Assembly: GCA_035502855.1 (NCBI GenBank)
Contig: DATJTX010000016.1
Coordinates: 62,001-126,000, forward strand
Source of the DNA: Candidatus Baltobacteraceae bacterium
GTDB lineage: Bacteria; Vulcanimicrobiota; Vulcanimicrobiia; Vulcanimicrobiales; Vulcanimicrobiaceae
Reading direction: 5' to 3'
Length of the DNA stretch: 64,000 nucleotides
The position numbers were made by a program, and so were the translations under genes. Below are positions 44,525-54,561 of the stretch, piece by piece (the stretch's first letter is position 1; the number at the start of each line of letters is the position of its first letter). The notes under the pieces are model-generated. The model made no database searches, was not told the DNA's origin, and was given only the letters and a program-made list of their open reading frames with translations.

Positions 44525-44623
44525 TGTTCGCCCTGGTGTCGTCGCCGGGAGGCTCATGGTCGCTCTTGATCACGTCGCCTCCCGGCGCCTAACCAGAACG
44601 AAAATTCCCGAGGTTCGCGCGTT

Positions 44624-44654
44624 AAAAGGGCCGGCAGAAATGCCGGCCCTTTTT
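44624..44654 (+). terminator. Rho-independent terminator behind the sedolisin gene
   Basis: A ten-base perfect stem AGGGCCGGCA / TGCCGGCCCT (44627-44636 and 44641-44650) with a GAAA tetraloop, preceded by AAA and followed by TTTT. It is the clearest intrinsic terminator in the window. Confidence 0.95.
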
Positions 44655-44685
44655 CTGTGTCTCGTGACGCGATGAGAACCGGCGC

Positions 44686-45063
44686 TTACTGCCAGTAGTA
44701 GTTGTCGCTACCTTTCATCAGCGTCTTGCTCGTTGGATATCCGGGTCCGATCTCGACCTTCGCGGTCGTGTCATAAATCTTCTTGCCTTGATCGTTCATG
44801 ACGTCACCGCGAACGTAATACGTATTGCCTTCGATCAACTCTTGGGTGAACGACTTGCCGGGCTCCATCCAGCCGCCCGCGATCATCTTGCGAATGCCGA
44901 ACGTTTCCGTTTTGTACCACGTTACCCATGTCTTCGTGTTGATTTTGCTGTAGACCACGTACTTCATCCGGTCGCCGGGCTTTGCCGACACGGTTTGCGT
45001 AACGGTCAGGGAGGTGAGCATCATGGTCGCTAGAGCTATAAACAAAAAAGAGCGTCGCTTCAT
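44686..45063 (-). CDS. Small exported protein of unknown function
   Basis: A 125-aa protein with a signal peptide (MKRRSFLFIALATMMLTSLTVTQTVSA) and a mature beta-rich domain of about 98 residues, rich in Lys, Tyr, Thr and Trp (KTWVTWYKTETFGIRKMIAGG). It has no cysteine. A perfect GAGGAGG lies upstream of the ATG at 45063. Its lower GC content and lysine richness set it apart from most neighbours. It is transcribed toward the sedolisin terminator. No family recognised. Confidence 0.7.
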   Translation of the reverse strand: MKRRSFLFIALATMMLTSLTVTQTVSAKPGDRMKYVVYSKINTKTWVTWYKTETFGIRKMIAGGWMEPGKSFTQELIEGNTYYVRGDVMNDQGKKIYDTTAKVEIGPGYPTSKTLMKGSDNYYWQ

Positions 45064-45116
45064 CGTTAGTCCTCCTCACGTCGACTAGCGACGGAGCGCC
45101 CGCTGAATCCTTTACA

Positions 45117-45451
45117 GCGAAGCAGCCACGGCGAGGCCCCGCGGCGGCATATCATCCTGCGCCGGAAGCGTTCCCGTGTTCGCAACCTGCGCGATCAACG
45201 CGGCAATGCGGCGCGAGCTGTGTTTTGGCGCGACCAATTCCTGATTGCGTCGAATCTCGTCGAGCCGGTGCGGCGTGCGAATCATCGCGCGCACCGCGCG
45301 CACGACCTCGGCGGCGCTATGGATGGCGATCGCGCCCAGGCCGTTGTGCCGGACGAACTCGACGTTGCCGCGCTCCTGTCCGGGCACGTAGTCGTAGACG
45401 ACCATTGGAAGCTGGGCGGCGTTGGCCTCGGCAATGGACCCGGGCCCGGCT
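45117..45451 (-). repeat. Direct repeat, block 1 left copy
   Basis: 335 bases matching 53370-53704 with 11 mismatches counted by hand (96.7 percent). Same orientation as the right copy; the distance between copies is 8253 bases. Confidence 0.95.
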
Positions 45452-45705
45452 GTGGATGGATCGGCTGACCCAGGAGCCGCAGCCGGTTAGGCGAGATACC
45501 GCGCGAGAGGGCGCGTTCGTAGACTTCGCGCGCCGGCACGACGACCGCGTCGGCATCGGGCATGAGCCAGGACTCGTGGACCTTCCCGAGATCCGTGATG
45601 ACGGTCACGATCGGCACGTGTTCCAGCTGCGCATCGGCTCGCGCGCGCAGCGCGGCGTGATTGAGAAGCGGATGGACCGAGACGATCACGTCCGGTCCAT
45701 AGCTC
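45452..45705 (-). repeat. Direct repeat, block 2 left copy
   Basis: 254 bases matching 54003-54256 with 3 mismatches counted by hand (98.8 percent). Immediately adjacent to block 1 here, but separated from it by 298 bases in the intact gene. Similarity stops abruptly after TAGCTC. Confidence 0.95.
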
Positions 45706-45722
45706 TCGGAGCGGCGATCACG

Positions 45723-46097
45723 TTAGGTCGTCGACCCGTGCGCCCCCGGATTCCCTGCAAACGCCATCGAGAGCGCGAGAAGCAGCGCGAGCACGCCCAT
45801 GACCGGCCCCCACCACTGCATTGGAATCCAGAAGAGCGAATGCGTCCGGCGAAGTACGACCTGCGAGCCGTCGCTGGGATCGACGAGCACACGTCCCGGC
45901 TCTGAATTCCACCTGACGCCCAGTATCCACACCAGGTATGCACCGATCGCGCCGCCGACGGCAACGCCAACGGCGCTTGCTATCGGCGAAATCATGGCAC
46001 CGATCACGGCGCACACGAAGACGAGGACGAGCGGGATGAGAACCGCGAGAAATCCCCAGCCGCGCCAGATGATGAAAAACATGGTCTCAGCATACAC
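45723..46097 (-). CDS. Small tryptophan-rich membrane protein
   Basis: A 124-aa protein with three predicted helices (about 7-30, 32-60, 95-113). Between helices two and three lies a soluble stretch (NSEPGRVLVDPSDGSQVVLRRTHSLFW) followed by IPMQWWGPVMG. The GTG at 46097 is three bases after the previous stop; ATG at 46082 is a good alternative. It is the last gene of the island operon. The pattern R-R-T-H-S-L-F-x-I-P-x-x-x-W is seen in small uncharacterised membrane proteins; no function is known. Confidence 0.7.
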   Translation of the reverse strand: MYAETMFFIIWRGWGFLAVLIPLVLVFVCAVIGAMISPIASAVGVAVGGAIGAYLVWILGVRWNSEPGRVLVDPSDGSQVVLRRTHSLFWIPMQWWGPVMGVLALLLALSMAFAGNPGAHGSTT

Positions 46098-46100
46098 CTT

Positions 46101-46586
46101 TCAGCAAGCGTTTTCGATTTGAACGCGTCCTATGCGCGCGAAGGGAATATATCTCTGGTTTTTTCGACCGCCCGGCGTTTCTTCGGACATATAGACGCCG
46201 CTCGTAACGACGCGCCGCACGCTGCACGCGCCGCACCACGTTTTGCCGGAGGTGTCGAAAACATCGAGCGCGCCGGTACGCGATACGAAAAACGAATCCC
46301 AGCTCGAGATTGCGGGAGGGTCGAGTCCGAAGCGCCGCAGCCAAGCGCTTTGCTCGGAAATCGTCCAGCGCCCGCGCTCGGTTGCTAGAAAAGAGCGAAT
46401 CTGCGCGACCGGCACGATCTCCGGCCAGTCGCAATCCGCCTCATTCGTGCCGTTGTCGAGTAACGTGACGGCCAGCGGCGTTGCCGCGACGATCTGCACG
46501 TTCGTCATCGTTCCGCAGCACGCGGTCGAGAGGTTGCCGGCGCTCCCGGCACGCAGCGACGCCGACAGCACGACCGCAAGGATCAT
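46101..46586 (-). CDS. Exported cysteine-containing protein of unknown function
   Basis: A 161-aa protein whose ATG overlaps the stop of the CHASE2-TIR gene (ATGA); the GAGGAGG ribosome site lies in the last codons of that gene. It has a short signal-like N-terminus and six cysteines (23, 24, 52, 118, 121, 161), including a WCGAC pair of thioredoxin-like spacing at 117-121. The C-terminal half is strand-rich (VRRVVTSGVYMSEE, RYIPFARIGRVQIE). Tight coupling suggests that it acts with the receptor, for example as an outer ligand-binding or redox-sensing partner. No family recognised. Confidence 0.65.
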   Translation of the reverse strand: MILAVVLSASLRAGSAGNLSTACCGTMTNVQIVAATPLAVTLLDNGTNEADCDWPEIVPVAQIRSFLATERGRWTISEQSAWLRRFGLDPPAISSWDSFFVSRTGALDVFDTSGKTWCGACSVRRVVTSGVYMSEETPGGRKNQRYIPFARIGRVQIENAC

Positions 46587-48337
46587 ACGCTAACCTCCTC
46601 ATCCGCGCGCGTGAGGCGCCGGACGATATCGGCGATGATGTCATCTAATTTATCGGGGCCGACTGCGTTGACACGCTGGAATTCCTGCGGAATGTTGGGC
46701 GCCCCGATCATGATGGGGCGCAGAAACGATGGATCGCCGGTCTCTATCCAACGTTTGTACGCGCACGTCAACTCGTGATAGCAATACCCTTTCTCCCCCT
46801 GCTTGAAATAGCTGTCGGAGTATATCGCTATGACAAAACGGCTGTTCATGACGTCGCGCGTGAGTTGCGGGAGCCAATCGATTCCCGACTCGAGACTGTC
46901 CCAGTCTTTATCGAAGAAGACGTTGAGTTTCCGGTTCGGCAGCGTCACCTTGTCGAGCGGGACCTTGATGTGGCTGTAAACCCAGTCGATGTCGGCGTGT
47001 GCATAGCTCAGGAAAACATCCCAATCGCGTTTGGCTCGCGGGTCGTCTTCCCACGTCGGAACTTGACTCGCCCGGACTCCCGAAAGTACGGCACTCAGAA
47101 GAATCCCCGCATACGCGAGCGAGACTTGCGGATAGACCGCCGGCGGGCTCAAGACGTCGATCGAGATCTTCCCCGCGACGAACAATGCAAGCGCCGTCAC
47201 CATCAGTCCAAGCGTTGCACTTATCGCAGGCAGCAGATAGCGCGCTCCCCGCAGACGGAAACGGCGCAGCAGCAGAAAGAACGCCGCGGTGGCGAACGCG
47301 GTCACGAGCGAGCAGAGCACGACGAAGACGAGAAGCCCGCTCTCGAGTGGTTTCACCTGGTATCCGGCGCCACCAATCATATCGCTTAGCGCCCAAGCCA
47401 AAAGCATAGGTCCTGGAACATCGACAAAGCCCGGTCCATGCAGCTGATTCAGCGATTCGATCACATTCGCTGTCGCCGCCGTATTCAGATGTTGAAACGG
47501 AAGGTCGTTTTCGAACGTCCCGACGATGATGTACGCACCGGGATTCTCGCGCAGACCGGCCGGCAGGGCGCGATCGGAGTCATGGACCGTATAGAATTGC
47601 GCGTTCGCCGGGCCGTTCGGTTTGGCATAATCGTCCTTCGACCAGTCACCGATCGAAACAAAGAGATTGCCCGTATCGCACGGGGTGCTCGTATCATGGC
47701 CTTGCCGCAGCACGTCCATCATCGACCAGACGTCCCAAGACGCCGCATCGCTCGATGGCGGAAATTCCGCGCCCGAGTAGCAGTGCCGATAGAAGACGAC
47801 ACCCGAATCGTGCGCGCCGAAGCGCGTATGAGCCGCGCCGGAAAGCGTCGCGTAGATCGGTCCGTCGTCCGCTTCCCGCCCCGTAGGAGCACCGGTCAGG
47901 TCGTCGGTTTGCAACAGCTCGACTGCATAAAGCTGCCAACCGTCCTTTCTGAGCCGCGAGAGCGCGTTGACAAGTCCCGTGCGAGCTTGCAGTGCCTGCC
48001 CTTCGCACGGCTCGCACGGCAGGAAGTGCAGGTCGAGAATCAGACGCCGCTCGTTCGGGTGCAGACCGTCGAGGCGCGTGAGGAGCATGGCGAGGCTGCG
48101 CTGATTTGCCGGGCGGTTTCCTGCGATATAGCTTCCCAGATCGACGAGCGTGATCTGCGGGCTGAGTCGCGATTGCAGCACGCTGTAACGCGCGGCGAGC
48201 TGCATATCCAATCCGTGCCAGGGGAACCACCAATAGGCAGCGATCATCAGCACCGCATAAATGAGGCACAGCACCACCGTCTGGCGTATCCATCGCGGAA
48301 TGAGCCGCCAGCGGTTGATCGCTCGCTTCATCGACAA
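46583..48337 (-). CDS. CHASE2-TIR transmembrane receptor
   Basis: A 584-aa protein. Helix 1 is at about 20-38. Residues 42-330 form an extracytoplasmic CHASE2-like sensor (SPQITLVDLGSYIAGNR, RRLILDLHFLP, GAYIIVGTFENDLPFQHLNT). Three more helices follow (about 332-353, 367-388, 400-420). Residues 438-575 form a cytoplasmic TIR domain (WDVFLSYAHADIDW, KLNVFFDKDWDSLESGIDWLPQL, FVIAIYSDSYF) whose catalytic Glu522 is kept in YCYHE. TIR domains with this Glu often cleave NAD or make cyclic ADP-ribose signals, as in Thoeris and related defence systems. CHASE2 is normally joined to cyclases or kinases, so a TIR output is striking. The NADase role is inference. Confidence 0.85.
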   Translation of the reverse strand: MSMKRAINRWRLIPRWIRQTVVLCLIYAVLMIAAYWWFPWHGLDMQLAARYSVLQSRLSPQITLVDLGSYIAGNRPANQRSLAMLLTRLDGLHPNERRLILDLHFLPCEPCEGQALQARTGLVNALSRLRKDGWQLYAVELLQTDDLTGAPTGREADDGPIYATLSGAAHTRFGAHDSGVVFYRHCYSGAEFPPSSDAASWDVWSMMDVLRQGHDTSTPCDTGNLFVSIGDWSKDDYAKPNGPANAQFYTVHDSDRALPAGLRENPGAYIIVGTFENDLPFQHLNTAATANVIESLNQLHGPGFVDVPGPMLLAWALSDMIGGAGYQVKPLESGLLVFVVLCSLVTAFATAAFFLLLRRFRLRGARYLLPAISATLGLMVTALALFVAGKISIDVLSPPAVYPQVSLAYAGILLSAVLSGVRASQVPTWEDDPRAKRDWDVFLSYAHADIDWVYSHIKVPLDKVTLPNRKLNVFFDKDWDSLESGIDWLPQLTRDVMNSRFVIAIYSDSYFKQGEKGYCYHELTCAYKRWIETGDPSFLRPIMIGAPNIPQEFQRVNAVGPDKLDDIIADIVRRLTRADEEVSV

Positions 48338-48346
48338 CCGGAGTGC

Positions 48347-50029
48347 CTAGTTATCGAAGGTCACGTTCGCGCGATTCACGACGTTGAGCAGCTCTTGGAA
48401 CATCGTCGTGACTTGCGCGGCAACCTTCGGGCCGGCGCTGCTGGATACGTCTTTGATATCGCCGTTGGCTTTATAGGTCACGTTGATGCTTCCGAGTCCG
48501 GTGACGGCGATGACCGTTGGATGGCCGTCCGCGTCGTACGCGAACGTCATTACGTGCGCTCCACTCGTAATCGAAGCGATCTGCCCCTTGTCGTCGTAGG
48601 TAAGCGCCAGGTCGTGACCATCGCTGTCGAGCGCATGCGTGACGTTGCCCTTGGAGTCGTACGTGAATTTAGACCACGTCGTCTTCTTTCCAATCGTGTC
48701 GGCGACGTAGCTTGGCTTACCCGTCTCGGGATCGTATTGCAATGCAACCTTCTCGTACGGGGTCTGCTTCATGACGACGCGTTCCAGCGAGTCGTAGGCA
48801 AAGGCCGACCAACCATCTGCCGTCGTAATCTTTAGCGGATACCCCGCAGCGTCGTAGATCGTGTCCTTCCAATCGCCGTCGGTGTTTTCGTAGAGCTCGT
48901 GGAGCTGGAGTGGTTCGGTCGTGCCAAGATACGTGTACCGATCCAGCTGCTGCGATTTGGCGCCGTCTTGCCCGGTCGTCGTAACGACCGCGGTCTGCAC
49001 GCTGTTTCCGCCGCGCACCGTTTGAAAGTACTTATATTGGCTCAAAACGCCGTCACTCGTCTTGACGCTCTTGACGTTCTCGAGCTGGTCGTACGGGTAG
49101 TAGGCGATGGCATAACTCGTGCCCCCTCCCGGCGTCCCCGAAACCTTGACGGCAACGAGATTGTGCCGTCCGTCGTACGTGTAGTCGTACACGTGGCCGT
49201 CTACGTCGACGGCGTGAACGAGATCCTTGCCGCTATAGCTGTATTGCGCCGTTTTGCCGGACGCTTCGGTTACCGACGCCACAAAGCCGTTCGCGTCCAC
49301 GTGGAAGATCAAGCGATCTCCCTTGCTGTTGTCGATCTCCGTGAGATGCCCATTCGCATCGTAGGTATACGAAACGGAATTACCGTTCGAATCCTCGGCT
49401 CGCACCAGGTGCCCGGAAGGATCGAAGAGCTGCGTTTTTCCGTCTGGCGTATCGCGGCGGTAGCCATCGGCGGTGCGTGTGACGATCTGTGTTGAAAACC
49501 GGCCGCTGAAGAATCGCTCGCCGACTGGTAGAACCAGCGGCGCGATGAGATTCCGCTCGCGATAGTACTCCCATTGCTTCTCGAGATAGTCTCCCTGCAA
49601 CGAAGACTCGTACTTGCGCTTCGCATCGTCACTCGAGAAAGCACCGCTCTTGGTCGCCGCGTCCATCACCTCGGCGACGATCGTGTCCTGGGTTCTCAAA
49701 GGAACGTCCCGCGGCGCGAAATGATTGTCCGCGCCGCCGCCGTACTCATGGACGACGAGCGACCCATCGGCTTGCACGCGCAAGTTCACTTCGAAGTCGG
49801 CGCCCCAGCCCTCGCCGAACATACCGGTGAAGTCGGTCTTGCTGTTGTACACGCGCTCGACCTGCGTGTCGAGGGATCCGACCGCATAATCGTCGGTGTC
49901 CGTGTACGCGATGAAAAAATTTCCGTTTTTCAAGCTGACGTTCGCGCTCGCGTTTTCGACCCCGAGCACGAACATGCCCACGCAAGCGACAATCGTAAGG
50001 CAATGTCTCTGCTTCCCCGCGATGCCCAT
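48347..50029 (-). CDS. Exported RHS/YD-repeat protein without toxin domain
   Basis: A 560-aa protein with a signal peptide (KQRHCLTIVACVGMFVLG ... ASA). Residues of about 30-175 form an N-terminal domain with SLDTQVERVYNSKTDFTGMFGEGWG, the common opening of RHS/DUF6531-type shells. It is followed by about ten YD repeats (LVRAEDSNGNSVSYTYDANGH, VDGHVYDYTYDGRHNL, WSAFAYDSLERVV, KFTYDSKGNVTHALD, LALTYDDKGQIASI). It lacks the RHS core-autocleavage motif and any C-terminal toxin. The ATG at 50029 follows GAGGAGA. It is separated by 9 bases from the CHASE2-TIR gene and by 22 from the TPR gene. It could be a surface ligand for the sensor. Confidence 0.82.
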   Translation of the reverse strand: MGIAGKQRHCLTIVACVGMFVLGVENASANVSLKNGNFFIAYTDTDDYAVGSLDTQVERVYNSKTDFTGMFGEGWGADFEVNLRVQADGSLVVHEYGGGADNHFAPRDVPLRTQDTIVAEVMDAATKSGAFSSDDAKRKYESSLQGDYLEKQWEYYRERNLIAPLVLPVGERFFSGRFSTQIVTRTADGYRRDTPDGKTQLFDPSGHLVRAEDSNGNSVSYTYDANGHLTEIDNSKGDRLIFHVDANGFVASVTEASGKTAQYSYSGKDLVHAVDVDGHVYDYTYDGRHNLVAVKVSGTPGGGTSYAIAYYPYDQLENVKSVKTSDGVLSQYKYFQTVRGGNSVQTAVVTTTGQDGAKSQQLDRYTYLGTTEPLQLHELYENTDGDWKDTIYDAAGYPLKITTADGWSAFAYDSLERVVMKQTPYEKVALQYDPETGKPSYVADTIGKKTTWSKFTYDSKGNVTHALDSDGHDLALTYDDKGQIASITSGAHVMTFAYDADGHPTVIAVTGLGSINVTYKANGDIKDVSSSAGPKVAAQVTTMFQELLNVVNRANVTFDN

Positions 50030-50051
50030 GAACCGGTCTCCTCTCACGTTG

Positions 50052-52913
50052 CTAGTGCCAGAGCGGCGCTCCGGTGCCGCTCAGGAGTGACTGGATGGCA
50101 GGCACGTTCGGCGAATCGACGCCGTGCTGCCGGTAGCGTGTAAAATCCGCGAGCGCGATCGCCGCAAAGGTTTCGCCGGAATCGCCGTACCTCGCATCGC
50201 GGATCCGCAGGTAGAGCGGCTTTGCCGAAGCAAGGTCGTTCGAGTACAGATACGCATGTGCGAGCCGCAGCAAGAGTAGCGGGTTCGTCGCGTCGACCTG
50301 CAGACCGGCCTGCGCGATCCGGACGGCGTCGGCCGGCGCACCGTTCAAAATGTCCTCATCCGCGAGCGCCTCGGCATCATCGACGAATTCAGTCTTGGCG
50401 CTTGGAGAATCCGACCGGAACGCGCTCGCGAGCCGGTCGCGCGCAGCGCCGTTCCCTTTCAGCATAGCCTCGATCTCGCTCGACTGCGCGACGTCGACGC
50501 CGCCGGTCCGGTACGCGTCGATCGCCTTGATCAGCACATCTCCCGCGTCGTCGAAGATGACGGGCGTCGCGGAGACCTGAATCGGCCGGTCGTGGTAACG
50601 TAAAAACACGCTAGCGGCCGAATCCGCATCGCCCGAATAGAGCGCACCTTCGCCAAGCGCGAGTTGCAGCTCGACCGCCTCGGGCAGGAGCGCGTCGATT
50701 CTTGCGAGATCCGTCGCGACCCGCTGAGGTTGATGCGCTTTGACGTCCGCATCGGCCAGATCCCGGAAGGCGAGCTCGACCGTCCCCGTGTCGAGCGGCC
50801 CGAGATGATTGAGCGAGCTTGCGTTGCGGCCGCCCAGCGTGACGAGATCGAGAGCGAGTGAATAGAGCGAACGCGCGCGATCGAGATCGTTTGCATCGAG
50901 CGCCTGGATGCCGCCCGCGAAGATACGCGGTGCGACGTACCGAACGCCGTCGTCGTAGACGTCGTTGGGCCACGCACCGCCGGCGGCGGTCGCGGCGCCA
51001 TAGGCTAACTCCTCGCCTTTGGCAGCGGTGAGATAGTCCGCAGCATCCGCCGCCTCCCTTCCCAAAGACTCATCCGCCACGAGAACGGTCCGCGCGTCGA
51101 GGTGCTCGCTCGTCGCGAGATTCGCGGCAGACTGATAATTGGCTTCGGCCTGCGCCAGATACGAGGGCTCGCGGGAAGAAAGGTTCCACTGCGTCCGCGC
51201 AACGTCTTCGTAAGCCCAAACCAGCTCGTCGGGAGCGTCGGACATTTCCTTTGCGGTCGCGAGTTCCATCTGCGCATAGCGAATCGACGCGTCGTCATCG
51301 TGGAGCCCGTTTGCGATACCGCTCAATTCAGCGTACGTCTCGCGGTTTTCCGCGGGATTACCGTGGCCCTCGAGCTCCTTGGCATAGCTCAGCGCCTTGA
51401 GATACGCTTGCTTCTCCGCATCGTCGTCGTGCAAGTGCGAATCGATCTCGCCGAGTTCCCAATACATCTCGTAGTCGTCCTCGGCCGGGACGTTCGGCAG
51501 CACGTCGAGGATCGAGATCGCATGCTGCGTCAGCGCAAGCGCTTTCACGTAATCTTGTTTGTCGATGTAAGCGAGAATCAACGGACGAATGCCTTGCCCC
51601 ACGACTTTCTCGGCCTTCTCCGTTCCGAGCAAGTGCAACCACGCGTCGTACGCTCTCTGCGCGTACGATAGCGCCAAATCGGGATTGTCCGTGTTCCCAT
51701 AGGCGATCGACACTTGCTGAAGAAGGCGCGCGACCGTCGGCGTGGTGGCGTTTGCACCCCCGAGATTCTTCGCGACGGAGAGCGCCTGTAGAACATAGCC
51801 AAGCTCCTTTTGCGTATCGATGCTGTAATACGCATTTCCGAGGCGTTCCAGCGCTACGACATCGCCTCGACCGGGCTTATTCTCGGCGGCCCGAAAAATC
51901 TTGAGTTCCTGCGTGTACGCGTCGATTGCTCGTTCGAATCGGCCGAGGTCCATGAACACGTCGGCTTCCGACCCGAGCGCCCATGCGTGCCCTTTCTGCG
52001 TGCCGGCCGGATCCAGCCGGTTCCACATCGCGACCGACGCTTGCGCCATCGAGAGCGCTTGCGCGTCCTCGTCGTTGCTGTTCAAAGCGGCGGCGAGCGT
52101 GGAGTACTCATTCGCGACGTCGGCGTTGTCGCCAGTAAAGCGTTGCTGCGCCAATTTCAGAGCGTCTCGCGCGTGCTCTTCTTCGCTCTTGTAATCGCCG
52201 CTATCACCTTCGACGCGGGAGAGTGCGTCCAGCGCGGTTTCTATCCGGTCGGGATCGCCGCTGTGCTGCGCCTCTGCCAATCGATCCTTGTAATACTGCA
52301 CGGCACCGACGAGCGTCCCGAAGCTCTTGATATACTGCCCCTCGGTGAAACTGTAGTATTTTGCATCGTTTGGCCCGATGACGTCGATCTCGCGTACGTT
52401 GGGAACTTCGCTGCCCGAATCTTTTATGAAGACCGTCGCCGTGCTCGTGGCGTTCACGCGGCCCGCGCTGCAGGAAACGGTGACTCCATGCTCGTCTGCT
52501 TCGACCGTGTAGACCGGGTCCTCGGCGGCAGCATCGACGCCGTGCGCGCTCACGGTGTAGAATCCGCGCGGATCGTTCAGCGCCGCTTTACACGCGGCAA
52601 CGCAGGCGACATTTTCATGCGTCCCGATCTTTTGGAATCGGTACGATCCTGAGAAAAGCGTCACGGTTTGCGCCCCCGCGACGATCGCTACGCTCACGCC
52701 GGCCGGCACTGCAACTTGAAACGCATCGGGAAGCGGCGCGTTCCCCTGAAGTTGCGCCTGCGTAATTTGCGCAGCAAACCGTAGATCCGGACGGCGCGCC
52801 TCGGGCCAAACGCTTCCGACCCTCAACGTTCCCGAATCGGCCGCACTCGTACGCCCGCTCGCACAGAATGCGAGCAGGGTGACGATCATAACAATCCGTC
52901 GCTGCAGTCTCAT
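50052..52913 (-). CDS. Large exported TPR-repeat protein
   Basis: A 953-aa protein with a signal peptide (VMIVTLLAFCASGRTSA). Residues of about 25-200 form a beta-rich domain with four cysteines (NVACVAACKAAL, VSCSAGRV). From about 205 to the end it is built of helical pairs of tetratricopeptide type (AHAWALGSEADVFMDLGRFERAIDAYTQEL, NAYYSIDTQKELGYVLQALSVA, LRLAHAYLYSNDLASAKPLYLRI). No enzyme domain is seen. It is the first gene of the island operon; GTG at 52919 is an alternative start. It is likely a periplasmic or surface scaffold. Confidence 0.82.
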   Translation of the reverse strand: MRLQRRIVMIVTLLAFCASGRTSAADSGTLRVGSVWPEARRPDLRFAAQITQAQLQGNAPLPDAFQVAVPAGVSVAIVAGAQTVTLFSGSYRFQKIGTHENVACVAACKAALNDPRGFYTVSAHGVDAAAEDPVYTVEADEHGVTVSCSAGRVNATSTATVFIKDSGSEVPNVREIDVIGPNDAKYYSFTEGQYIKSFGTLVGAVQYYKDRLAEAQHSGDPDRIETALDALSRVEGDSGDYKSEEEHARDALKLAQQRFTGDNADVANEYSTLAAALNSNDEDAQALSMAQASVAMWNRLDPAGTQKGHAWALGSEADVFMDLGRFERAIDAYTQELKIFRAAENKPGRGDVVALERLGNAYYSIDTQKELGYVLQALSVAKNLGGANATTPTVARLLQQVSIAYGNTDNPDLALSYAQRAYDAWLHLLGTEKAEKVVGQGIRPLILAYIDKQDYVKALALTQHAISILDVLPNVPAEDDYEMYWELGEIDSHLHDDDAEKQAYLKALSYAKELEGHGNPAENRETYAELSGIANGLHDDDASIRYAQMELATAKEMSDAPDELVWAYEDVARTQWNLSSREPSYLAQAEANYQSAANLATSEHLDARTVLVADESLGREAADAADYLTAAKGEELAYGAATAAGGAWPNDVYDDGVRYVAPRIFAGGIQALDANDLDRARSLYSLALDLVTLGGRNASSLNHLGPLDTGTVELAFRDLADADVKAHQPQRVATDLARIDALLPEAVELQLALGEGALYSGDADSAASVFLRYHDRPIQVSATPVIFDDAGDVLIKAIDAYRTGGVDVAQSSEIEAMLKGNGAARDRLASAFRSDSPSAKTEFVDDAEALADEDILNGAPADAVRIAQAGLQVDATNPLLLLRLAHAYLYSNDLASAKPLYLRIRDARYGDSGETFAAIALADFTRYRQHGVDSPNVPAIQSLLSGTGAPLWH

Positions 52914-53364
52914 CGTCACTCTTCGGCAGTGCTGGAGCGTTCTGTAGCGCGGGCTGCGAACCTCTCGCTAGGTCTCTTCTCGACTGCCCTTATCGTGACG
53001 ACCGCCTCCAACGCCATCGGAATCGAGCGTGCGAACGGAGTGCGTGCGTGCGCCGGTCGCCGTGCGGTCGGGCGGCAGTCGGCGCACGACGCGCGCAATG
53101 CGATCGAGTGCCCTGCACTGAGAACTGCCGCTTTGCGGGGGGTTGTAATACGCTACAGCAGGCCGTACGCTATAACGTTCCCGTTCTGATCCGAGCAGTC
53201 GACCCAGCCACAGCGGAATGCGTTCGCATCCAAATAGCGTACGCATCCGTTGTCGTCGGTACTCTGTCAGCCAGCCCCATGACGCGGGCCTCCCCGCTTA
53301 CGAATGGTCGTGGCGCGTCGCCCTGGTTCGCCTCAACACCCGGGCAGTCCTAAGGCGTACCCGA
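52914..53364. other. 451-base stretch without a supported gene
   Basis: It lies between the start of the island operon and the end of the intact glycosyltransferase gene. Short open frames exist on both strands, the best being 53246-52968 on the minus strand (92 codons, no ribosome site). None has a recognisable domain. The island promoter should be here, on the minus strand, but no clear -35/-10 pair was found. No tRNA, inverted repeat or attachment-like sequence was recognised. Confidence 0.5.
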
Positions 53365-54561
53365 CTAAAGCGAAGCAGCCACGGCGAGGCCGCGCGGCGG
53401 CATATCATCCTGGGCCGGTAGCGTTCCCGAGTTCGCAACCTGCGCGATCAATGCGGCAATGCGGCGCGAGCTGTGTTTTGGCGCGACCAACTCCTGATTG
53501 CGTCGAATCTCCTCGAGCCGGTGCGGCGTGCGAATCATCGCGCGCACCGAGCGCACGACCTCGGCGGCGCTGTGGATGGCGATCGCGCCTAGGCCGTTGT
53601 GCCGGACGAACTCGACGTTGCCGCGTTCCTGTCCGGGCACGTAGTCGTAGACGACCATTGGAAGCTGGGCGGCGTTGGCCTCGGCAATGGACCCGGGCCC
53701 GGCTTTGGTCACCAACAGATCGACGGCGCGGAAATATTCGGGAATCTTGTCGGTGAAGCCGAGCACCGAGATCGGCGTCGGCAGCCGCCGGGCGATCTCT
53801 TCCAGCCGGACGCGGAGCGTTTCGTTGCGGCCGCACACGACCAGCAAATGGATCGGCAAGCGCGCTTTCGCGAGCGCCAGCGTCGTCGGAAGAAGTTTGC
53901 CGCCGCCCTCGCCGCCTGCCATCAGCATGACGACGAGCCGATCGCCCGGTAGGCCGAGCTGAGCGCGCAGCATCGGTTTGGTCCCGACCACGTCGTCGAA
54001 CCGTGGATGGATCGGCTGACCCAGGAGCCGCAGCCGGCTAGGCGAGATACCGCGCGAGAGGGCGCGTTCGTAGACTTCGCGCGCCGGCACGACGACCGCG
54101 TCGGCATCGGGCATGAGCCACGACTCGTGGACCTTCCCGAGATCGGTGATGACGGTCACGATCGGCACGTGTTCCAGCTGCGCATCGGCTCGCGCGCGCA
54201 GCGCGGCGTGATTGAGAAGCGGATGGACCGAGACGATCACGTCCGGTCCATAGCTCAGGAAAAGGTCGCGCAGGCGTTCGCGGTAGAGCGGTTCACAGAA
54301 GCGGACCAACGCCCGGTAACGACGGCGCCCGTTGGTCGCATAGTACAGCGCGCCATAGACCGGCGGTGCGTAGCGCAGCGCCATGCTGTAGCCCAGACCG
54401 AGTTGGGTGAGCGGGAAGGAGCAGTGGGCGGCGACGTCTTCGATGCGGTGCTCGAATGAAACGGGCTCCGTGATTTCGTCCAAGGCTGCGGTGATTGCGT
54501 TCGATGCGCTTCGGTGCCCGCCGCCCGTGTCCGAAATCAGGAAGAGCGCCCGTTTGGTCAT
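53365..54561 (-). CDS. GT28-type glycolipid glycosyltransferase (MGDG synthase-like)
   Basis: A 398-aa glycosyltransferase of the MurG/diacylglycerol glucosyltransferase class. The N-terminal domain opens with LISDTGGGHRSASNAI and continues with the processive-type acceptor region (GYSMALRYAPPVYGALYY, DVIVSVHPLL). The donor domain has MLMAGGEGGGKLLPT and the nucleotide-sugar motif TKAGPGSIAEANAAQLP. It would add sugars to diacylglycerol or a similar lipid on the inner membrane face. The GGAG ribosome site precedes the ATG. It follows a fatty-acid-hydroxylase-like gene by 17 bases, suggesting synthesis of a modified glycolipid. Its last two thirds are duplicated at 45.1 kb. Confidence 0.9.
   Translation of the reverse strand: MTKRALFLISDTGGGHRSASNAITAALDEITEPVSFEHRIEDVAAHCSFPLTQLGLGYSMALRYAPPVYGALYYATNGRRRYRALVRFCEPLYRERLRDLFLSYGPDVIVSVHPLLNHAALRARADAQLEHVPIVTVITDLGKVHESWLMPDADAVVVPAREVYERALSRGISPSRLRLLGQPIHPRFDDVVGTKPMLRAQLGLPGDRLVVMLMAGGEGGGKLLPTTLALAKARLPIHLLVVCGRNETLRVRLEEIARRLPTPISVLGFTDKIPEYFRAVDLLVTKAGPGSIAEANAAQLPMVVYDYVPGQERGNVEFVRHNGLGAIAIHSAAEVVRSVRAMIRTPHRLEEIRRNQELVAPKHSSRRIAALIAQVANSGTLPAQDDMPPRGLAVAASL
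53370..53704 (-). repeat. Direct repeat, block 1 right copy
   Basis: Right-hand copy of the 335-base block, inside the intact glycosyltransferase gene; encodes its C-terminal region. Pairs with 45117-45451. Confidence 0.95.
54003..54256 (-). repeat. Direct repeat, block 2 right copy
   Basis: Right-hand copy of the 254-base block inside the intact glycosyltransferase gene. Pairs with 45452-45705. The 298 bases between the two right-hand blocks are absent from the left copy. Confidence 0.95.

What the first reader, a model, noticed from the sequence alone, without database searches (positions are those of the whole stretch)
45723..52913. Five-gene island operon built around a CHASE2-TIR membrane receptor
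Seen directly: one minus-strand run with gaps of 22 and 9 bases, one ATGA overlap and a 3-base gap encodes, in order, a secreted TPR protein (953 aa), a secreted RHS/YD-repeat protein (560 aa), a protein with CHASE2-like sensor, four helices and a TIR domain with Glu522 kept, an exported protein with WCGAC, and a three-helix membrane protein. Known: CHASE2 senses extracytoplasmic signals for cyclases and kinases; TIR domains with this Glu cleave NAD or make cyclic nucleotides in bacterial immunity. Inference: an outside-in alarm in which surface proteins (TPR, RHS) present a signal, CHASE2 senses it and TIR depletes NAD or makes a messenger. I know of no described system with this set.
Basis: partly seen in the sequence, partly recalled or inferred. 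Interest (0 to 1): 0.78.

Follow-up and report, generated by a model that had tools for sequence, protein, structure and literature searches.

The report
Bacterial envelope receptor with TIR output
A soil bacterium of the phylum Vulcanimicrobiota (Eremiobacterota) carries, on a recently inserted gene island, a membrane receptor that appears to sense something outside the cell and to pass it inward to a TIR domain, a module used in immune signalling across life; its constant partner is a secreted FecR-like repeat protein, and the wiring is related to known bacterial sensors that end in kinases or cyclases.

Summary
The five minus-strand genes are real, at the stated coordinates. The central protein is an N-terminal helix, a divergent CHASE2-like extracytoplasmic domain, three helices and a TIR domain; the catalytic-type Glu is invariant in all 14 relatives found, all in Eremiobacterota, three of them in this genome. 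A secreted FecR-TPR/Sel1 gene sits beside 12 of the 13 other CHASE2-TIR genes. FecR-CHASE2 pairing is known for kinases and cyclases, so this is a TIR-output variant of a known envelope-sensing module. The RHS protein is not random: all seven other full-length relatives in the phylum follow a TIR gene plus a membrane nSTAND1-WD40 gene. It has no RHS-core autoprotease motif or toxin tail. Neighbours of other CHASE2-TIR loci (SLOG-SLATT, MAP3K/TPR-S, CapV-like patatin) point to conflict or cell-death signalling. The full five-gene set occurs nowhere else searched; the 161-aa and 124-aa genes are poorly conserved accessories. The block is an insertion: the sister genome shows the empty site, and a truncated copy of the adjacent glycosyltransferase gene marks the junction. 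NAD cleavage and the signal sensed remain inference.

The parts
46583..48331 (-). CHASE2-like/4-TM/TIR receptor, 582 aa (584 from TTG 48337): TM 18-36, extracytoplasmic 37-332, TM 333-351, 367-385, 403-421, TIR 436-582
   Evidence: Pfam TIR_2 E 2e-11; family alignment of 14; hydropathy and positive-inside topology; AF2 model, TIR matches SARM1/SPARTA/MyD88 TIR in PDB
   Evidence: invariant in 14/14 homologues; sequence check
50052..52913 (-). secreted FecR-like + TPR protein, 953 aa, first gene; extracytoplasmic partner
   Evidence: TPR_12 E 3e-8; signal-like N-terminal helix; N-terminal 230 aa vs FecR-partner profile A4: hhalign probability 98.9, E 2.3e-17; members of A4 hit Pfam FecR
48347..50029 (-). 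secreted RHS/YD-repeat protein, 560 aa, no RHS-core autoprotease motif and no toxin tail
   Evidence: RHS_repeat E 5e-29; RHS fold in AF2/Foldseek; 7 full-length relatives follow TIR + nSTAND1-WD40 genes; motif check
46101..46586 (-). 161-aa protein with WCGAC (CxxC), translationally coupled (ATGA) to the TIR gene; accessory, export unproven
   Evidence: one weak relative (G088, 23%, CRSC) not next to a TIR gene
45723..46097 (-). 124-aa small membrane protein, 3 predicted helices; accessory
   Evidence: relatives in 4 of 98 family genomes, one on the contig of the G103 TIR-nSTAND1-WD40-RHS operon
53365..54561 (-). intact MGDG-synthase-like glycosyltransferase gene at the upstream edge of the island (not part of the system)
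   Evidence: Pfam MGDG_synth E 9e-25
45112..45705 (-). truncated second copy of the same glycosyltransferase gene (96-99% identical, ~294-nt internal deletion) at the downstream edge: insertion scar
44525..53364 (.). inserted segment (island) relative to the sister genome G033, where the glycosyltransferase and S53 protease genes are 278 nt apart

Best explanation
It is a transmembrane TIR receptor operon. A secreted FecR-like/TPR protein, here joined by a secreted RHS-repeat protein, binds or presents a signal in the cell envelope to the CHASE2-like domain. The signal crosses the membrane through four helices and clusters the cytosolic TIR domains. These then most likely cleave NAD, either to make an ADP-ribose-type messenger for SLOG- or TPR-S-bearing effectors (present next to many sister loci, and as a SLOG-SLATT gene elsewhere in this genome) or to deplete NAD directly. 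The likely role is a conflict, cell-death or envelope-threat response. Shown: domain architecture, topology by prediction, constant FecR partner, recurrence of the RHS family with TIR operons, insertion of the block. Inferred: complex formation, NAD cleavage, messenger, biological trigger.
For: 14-member CHASE2-TIR family with invariant TIR Glu, Ser-Tyr, Arg and Asp positions; TIR_2 in 14/14, CHASE2 in 7/14; TIR fold matches NAD-hydrolysing SARM1 and SPARTA TIRs. FecR-TPR/Sel1 gene adjacent in 12/13 other loci and homologous to the window's first gene; the two proteins' trees share their main clades. In the phylum 44 of 91 listed CHASE2 genes have a FecR gene within 4 kb, all 44 on the same strand. 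RHS relatives in 7/7 cases follow a TIR gene and an nSTAND1-WD40 gene, a single-pass membrane protein in those checked. SLOG-SLATT genes lie within 5 kb of 7 of 11 CHASE2-TIR loci in other genomes; MAP3K/TPR-S and patatin genes also adjoin, and a patatin of this group matches CBASS phospholipase models (E 2.6e-36).
Against: No enzymatic data; TLR TIR domains keep a similar Glu, so it is not proof of catalysis (aligned). The window operon itself has no SLOG, patatin or other effector, and its TIR and FecR proteins are among the most divergent of the family (long branches). One of 13 other loci (L019) lacks the FecR gene. PADLOC finds no known defence system in the window operon. Neighbour evidence comes from few lineages of MAGs.
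Confidence: 0.6

Rival explanations
1. The same receptor, but for ordinary envelope or nutrient physiology rather than immunity: TIR replaces the cyclase or kinase of the FecR-CHASE2 module to make a physiological second messenger, with no cell death.
For: FecR-CHASE2 modules with kinase control biofilm (PMC5192318) and with cyclase make cAMP (PMC9239204); same-strand pairing is widespread in the phylum; three copies in one genome suggest a regulatory family; several other loci (L006, L007, L017) had at least 7 kb of flank on each side and showed no SLOG, patatin or MAP3K neighbour.
Against: SLOG-SLATT, MAP3K/TPR-S and patatin genes beside many sister loci; the RHS family otherwise sits with TIR-nSTAND1 receptors; patchy distribution, 10 of 149 genomes, and insertion fit conflict genes better.
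Confidence: 0.27
2. The TIR domain is a non-enzymatic adaptor that recruits another TIR protein (the genome has a separate TIR-NB-ARC-type protein at G000:C6), as animal TLR TIR domains do.
For: TIR profile aligns with TLR2/TLR15 as well as with bacterial and plant TIRs; PDB match to MyD88 TIR; other TIR proteins in the genome.
Against: Catalytic-type Glu and surrounding positions invariant in 14 divergent homologues; best structural match is NAD-bound SARM1.
Confidence: 0.1
3. Only CHASE2-TIR and FecR-TPR form the system; RHS, 161-aa and 124-aa genes are unrelated passengers picked up with the island.
For: No other CHASE2-TIR locus has RHS, 161-aa or 124-aa genes; 161-aa and 124-aa relatives are rare.
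Against: RHS relatives are TIR-operon genes in 7/7 cases; short gaps and an ATGA overlap.
Confidence: 0.25
4. An RHS polymorphic-toxin locus in which the TIR receptor is immunity or regulation.
For: RHS repeats and secretion signal; RHS fold match.
Against: The protein ends after the repeats: no RHS-core DPxG...GxNxYxY element at the C-terminus (only a lone DPxG at residue 203), no C-terminal toxin domain found; 560 aa looks too short for a closed RHS shell.
Confidence: 0.04

Closest known systems
FecR + CHASE2 sensory modules (Burkholderia BiofilmReg operon, PMC5192318; Campylobacterota CHASE2 adenylate cyclase cluster with FecR and TPR proteins, PMC9239204)
   Same: secreted or outer-membrane FecR-domain protein encoded beside a membrane protein with an extracytoplasmic CHASE2 domain; TPR protein also present in Campylobacterota
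   Different: output is a TIR domain instead of a histidine kinase or adenylate cyclase; no response regulator or phosphodiesterase; FecR fused to TPR/Sel1 repeats; RHS partner added here
Thoeris (ThsB TIR + ThsA SLOG-SIR2; PMC7272460, PMC11204291)
   Same: TIR domain with catalytic-type Glu; SLOG-domain proteins often nearby in sister loci
   Different: TIR is fused to a membrane sensor; no ThsA/SIR2; no SLOG gene in the window operon
TIR / nSTAND1-WD40 / RHS operons of Eremiobacterota (found here; nSTAND conflict systems in general: PMC10907252, PMC8195603)
   Same: TIR output, membrane-anchored receptor with a predicted extracytoplasmic domain, the same secreted RHS family, SLOG-SLATT and patatin neighbours
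   Different: receptor is nSTAND1-WD40 with a separate TIR gene; no FecR or CHASE2
Animal Toll-like receptors
   Same: extracellular sensing domain, membrane crossing, cytosolic TIR
   Different: no homology outside TIR; single helix and LRRs instead of CHASE2 and four helices; mechanism by adaptor assembly (from general knowledge)

Membership tests
CHASE2 sensor proteins (Pfam PF05226) | profile match to CHASE2 | tested here: inconclusive
   window protein no hit at E 1; 7/14 family members hit, paralogue L007 and L014 over the cut-off; profile-profile E 4e-5, probability 70%; single sequence alone no match
CHASE2 sensor proteins (Pfam PF05226) | N-terminal helix, ~300-aa extracytoplasmic domain, three helices, then cytosolic output | tested here: met
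   helices at 18, 333, 367, 403 with positive-inside pattern; AF2 helices agree
TIR-domain NADases | TIR fold | tested here: met
   TIR_2 E 2e-11; Foldseek probability 1.00 to SARM1, SPARTA, MyD88 TIRs
TIR-domain NADases | catalytic-type Glu on the helix after the YC/WC motif | tested here: met
   E520 invariant in 14/14
TIR-domain NADases | NAD cleavage or cyclisation | not testable with these tools
   needs an enzyme assay
FecR-CHASE2 sensory module | secreted FecR-domain gene next to the CHASE2 gene, same strand | tested here: met
   12/13 other CHASE2-TIR loci; window first gene homologous, with RHS between
FecR-CHASE2 sensory module | kinase or cyclase output | tested here: not met
   output is TIR; hence called a variant, not a member
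Thoeris | ThsA (SLOG-SIR2 or macro effector) partner | tested here: not met
   no such domain in the five genes
CBASS / Pycsar | CD-NTase or cyclase gene | tested here: not met
   none in the five genes
RHS polymorphic toxins | RHS core autoprotease and variable C-terminal toxin | tested here: not met
   no core motif at the C-terminus, protein ends after the repeats
STAND/NLR TIR receptors | STAND NTPase domain | tested here: not met
   absent from the five genes; present in the RHS-sharing operons

The most novel reading that the evidence does not exclude
Bacteria independently built Toll-like surface receptors: an extracytoplasmic sensor (CHASE2 with a FecR-TPR co-receptor, or WD40 propellers with nSTAND1), shared secreted RHS co-receptors, and a cytosolic TIR that makes a NAD-derived messenger read by SLOG-SLATT pores and CapV-like patatin lipases. 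The island in the window is a chimera of the two receptor classes.
Probability: 0.3. Interest if true: 0.85.

Novelty: new variant of a known kind. Interest (0 to 1): 0.66.

Why it matters
Characterised bacterial TIR immunity (Thoeris, TIR-CBASS, SPARTA) triggers inside the cell. A conserved family in which an extracytoplasmic sensor and secreted partners feed a cytosolic TIR domain would be a bacterial counterpart, in layout, of Toll-like receptors, and would show that the FecR-CHASE2 envelope sensor can be plugged into an immune-type output. It gives a concrete, testable set: one receptor, one constant partner, candidate effectors (SLOG-SLATT, patatin), and a point mutant.

Tried and rejected
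PADLOC, NCBIfam and PHROGs on the five proteins gave no system. No relatives on plasmids or viral contigs. RHS-toxin reading rejected (no core motif, no toxin end). The idea that the five-gene set is a conserved unit was rejected. Promoter and terminator scans were at the shuffle level. A search outside the phylum with the family profile could not be run ('of' needs a genome handle), and the single genome-contig scan used two short peptide patterns, so 'only in Eremiobacterota' is not established. The window protein alone against a CHASE2 profile gave no match; only the family profile did.
Full report
Observation. The five ORFs exist as described on the minus strand, 52913 to 45723, with gaps of 22, 9 (15 if the TIR gene starts at ATG 48331), an ATGA overlap and a 3-nt gap. 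Pfam identifies TPR, RHS repeats and TIR_2; the 161-aa and 124-aa proteins match nothing convincing. CHASE2 is not detected in the window protein itself.

Host. The window is contig C16 of a 3.33-Mb, 97% complete genome whose named relatives are all Vulcanimicrobiota/Eremiobacterota; the phylum assignment is inferred from these.

The receptor family. Two paralogues lie elsewhere in the genome and 11 more in relatives, 14 in all, every one from Eremiobacterota. All 14 match TIR_2 and 7 match CHASE2. The family's sensor profile aligns end to end with CHASE2 domains from the phylum (E 4e-5, probability 70%), although the window sequence alone does not. Hydropathy gives one N-terminal helix and three after the sensor, with positive charges placing the TIR inside; the AF2 model (mean pLDDT 73) agrees and its TIR part finds SARM1, SPARTA, MyD88 and TIR-STING TIRs in the PDB. 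The TIR Glu (520), Ser442-Tyr443, Asp474, Arg498 and Cys517 are invariant. TLRs align too, so the Glu is necessary but not proof of catalysis.

The constant partner. In 12 of the 13 other loci a secreted FecR-domain protein with TPR or Sel1 repeats is the adjacent downstream gene, mostly overlapping or nearly so; L014 has one on each side, L019 none. The window's first gene has the same N-terminal domain (hhalign probability 98.9, E 2.3e-17). The two proteins' trees share their main clades, with the window a long branch in both. In the whole phylum 44 of 91 CHASE2 genes taken from the listing have a FecR gene within 4 kb, all on the same strand (both lists were truncated by the tool, so this is a lower bound). 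This pairing is published for a kinase (PMC5192318) and for cyclases with an additional TPR protein (PMC9239204). Hence: a known sensory module, new output.

The RHS gene. Its seven other full-length relatives in 149 genomes (G103, G120, G129, G018, G019, G020, G025) all follow a TIR gene and an nSTAND1-WD40 gene. The nSTAND1-WD40 proteins checked carry one helix that would put the WD40 part outside, and the RHS proteins have signal-like N-termini. So this RHS family looks like an extracytoplasmic partner of membrane TIR signalling of two classes, and the window operon combines both. It lacks the RHS core at its C-terminus and any toxin end; the predicted fold is a YD-repeat sheet like RHS/teneurin proteins.

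Conflict neighbourhood. Next to sister CHASE2-TIR loci lie SLOG-SLATT proteins (7 of 11 non-own loci within 5 kb; divergent or 21 nt away in some), MAP3K-TRAF-binding/TPR-S relatives (L021, L024), patatins (one of the group matches CBASS phospholipase effectors), and in L023 a TIR-DUF4062 + nSTAND1 pair. These span at least four genera. SLATT proteins have been predicted to be nucleotide-signal-responsive pores in conflict systems (PMC7159879), and DUF4062 is reported to be a TIR-like NADase (preprint PMC13174449). The window operon has none of these, but the genome has a SLOG-SLATT gene at C5:8017-9627, not near a TIR gene.

Accessories. The 161-aa protein has one weak relative (G088; CxxC kept, not near a TIR gene). 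The 124-aa protein has relatives in four other genomes, one on the same contig as the G103 RHS operon.

Island. In the same-genus genome G033 the glycosyltransferase gene is followed after 278 nt by the S53 protease gene, without the operon. In the window 8.8 kb lie between them, including a truncated copy of the glycosyltransferase gene, 96-99% identical with an internal deletion. This fits insertion by recombination at, or duplication of, that gene. No plasmid or viral relatives were found.

Mechanism. Shown by computation: architecture, partner, recurrence, insertion. Inferred: FecR-TPR (and RHS) present a signal to CHASE2; TIR clusters; NAD is cleaved to a messenger or depleted; SLOG/TPR-S effectors respond where present. 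An immune or cell-death role is favoured over plain physiology by the neighbours and patchy distribution, but not decisively.

Noticed in passing
window 45112-45705 vs 53365-54561: Truncated, 96-99% identical second copy of an MGDG-synthase-like gene with a ~294-nt internal deletion sharing CCAC at its ends (microhomology); marks the island edge.
   Followed up: yes
L094, L095, L103, L119-L122 (G120, G129, G103, G020, G018, G019, G025): Undescribed-looking operon class: TIR protein, single-pass membrane nSTAND1-WD40 protein, secreted RHS protein; CHAT-TPR protease gene downstream in G103; SLOG-SLATT beside or near six of the seven.
   Followed up: partly
L094:6205-10870, L021, L022, L024, L020: MAP3K-TRAF-binding/TPR-S, SLOG-SLATT and patatin(-SLOG) genes recur together near TIR receptors; the L094 patatin matches CBASS phospholipase models (E 2.6e-36).
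   Followed up: partly
L006:6623-7596: An Xre/MbcA/ParS-like antitoxin (below Pfam cut-off) and a RES-domain toxin gene (E 3e-10; RES toxins degrade NAD, from general knowledge) lie 0.5 kb upstream of the C24 CHASE2-TIR paralogue.
   Followed up: partly
L104:4463-6000 (G126:C252): A CHASE2-TIR remnant (116 aa, N-terminal part only) abuts a separate 397-aa TIR protein: probably a decayed extra copy.
   Followed up: no
L154:7830-10490 (G000:C6): An 886-aa TIR-NB-ARC/STAND-like protein, the fourth TIR protein of this genome.
   Followed up: no
window 44686-45063: 125-aa signal-peptide-like protein without Pfam match, inside the inserted segment and downstream of the truncated gene.
   Followed up: no
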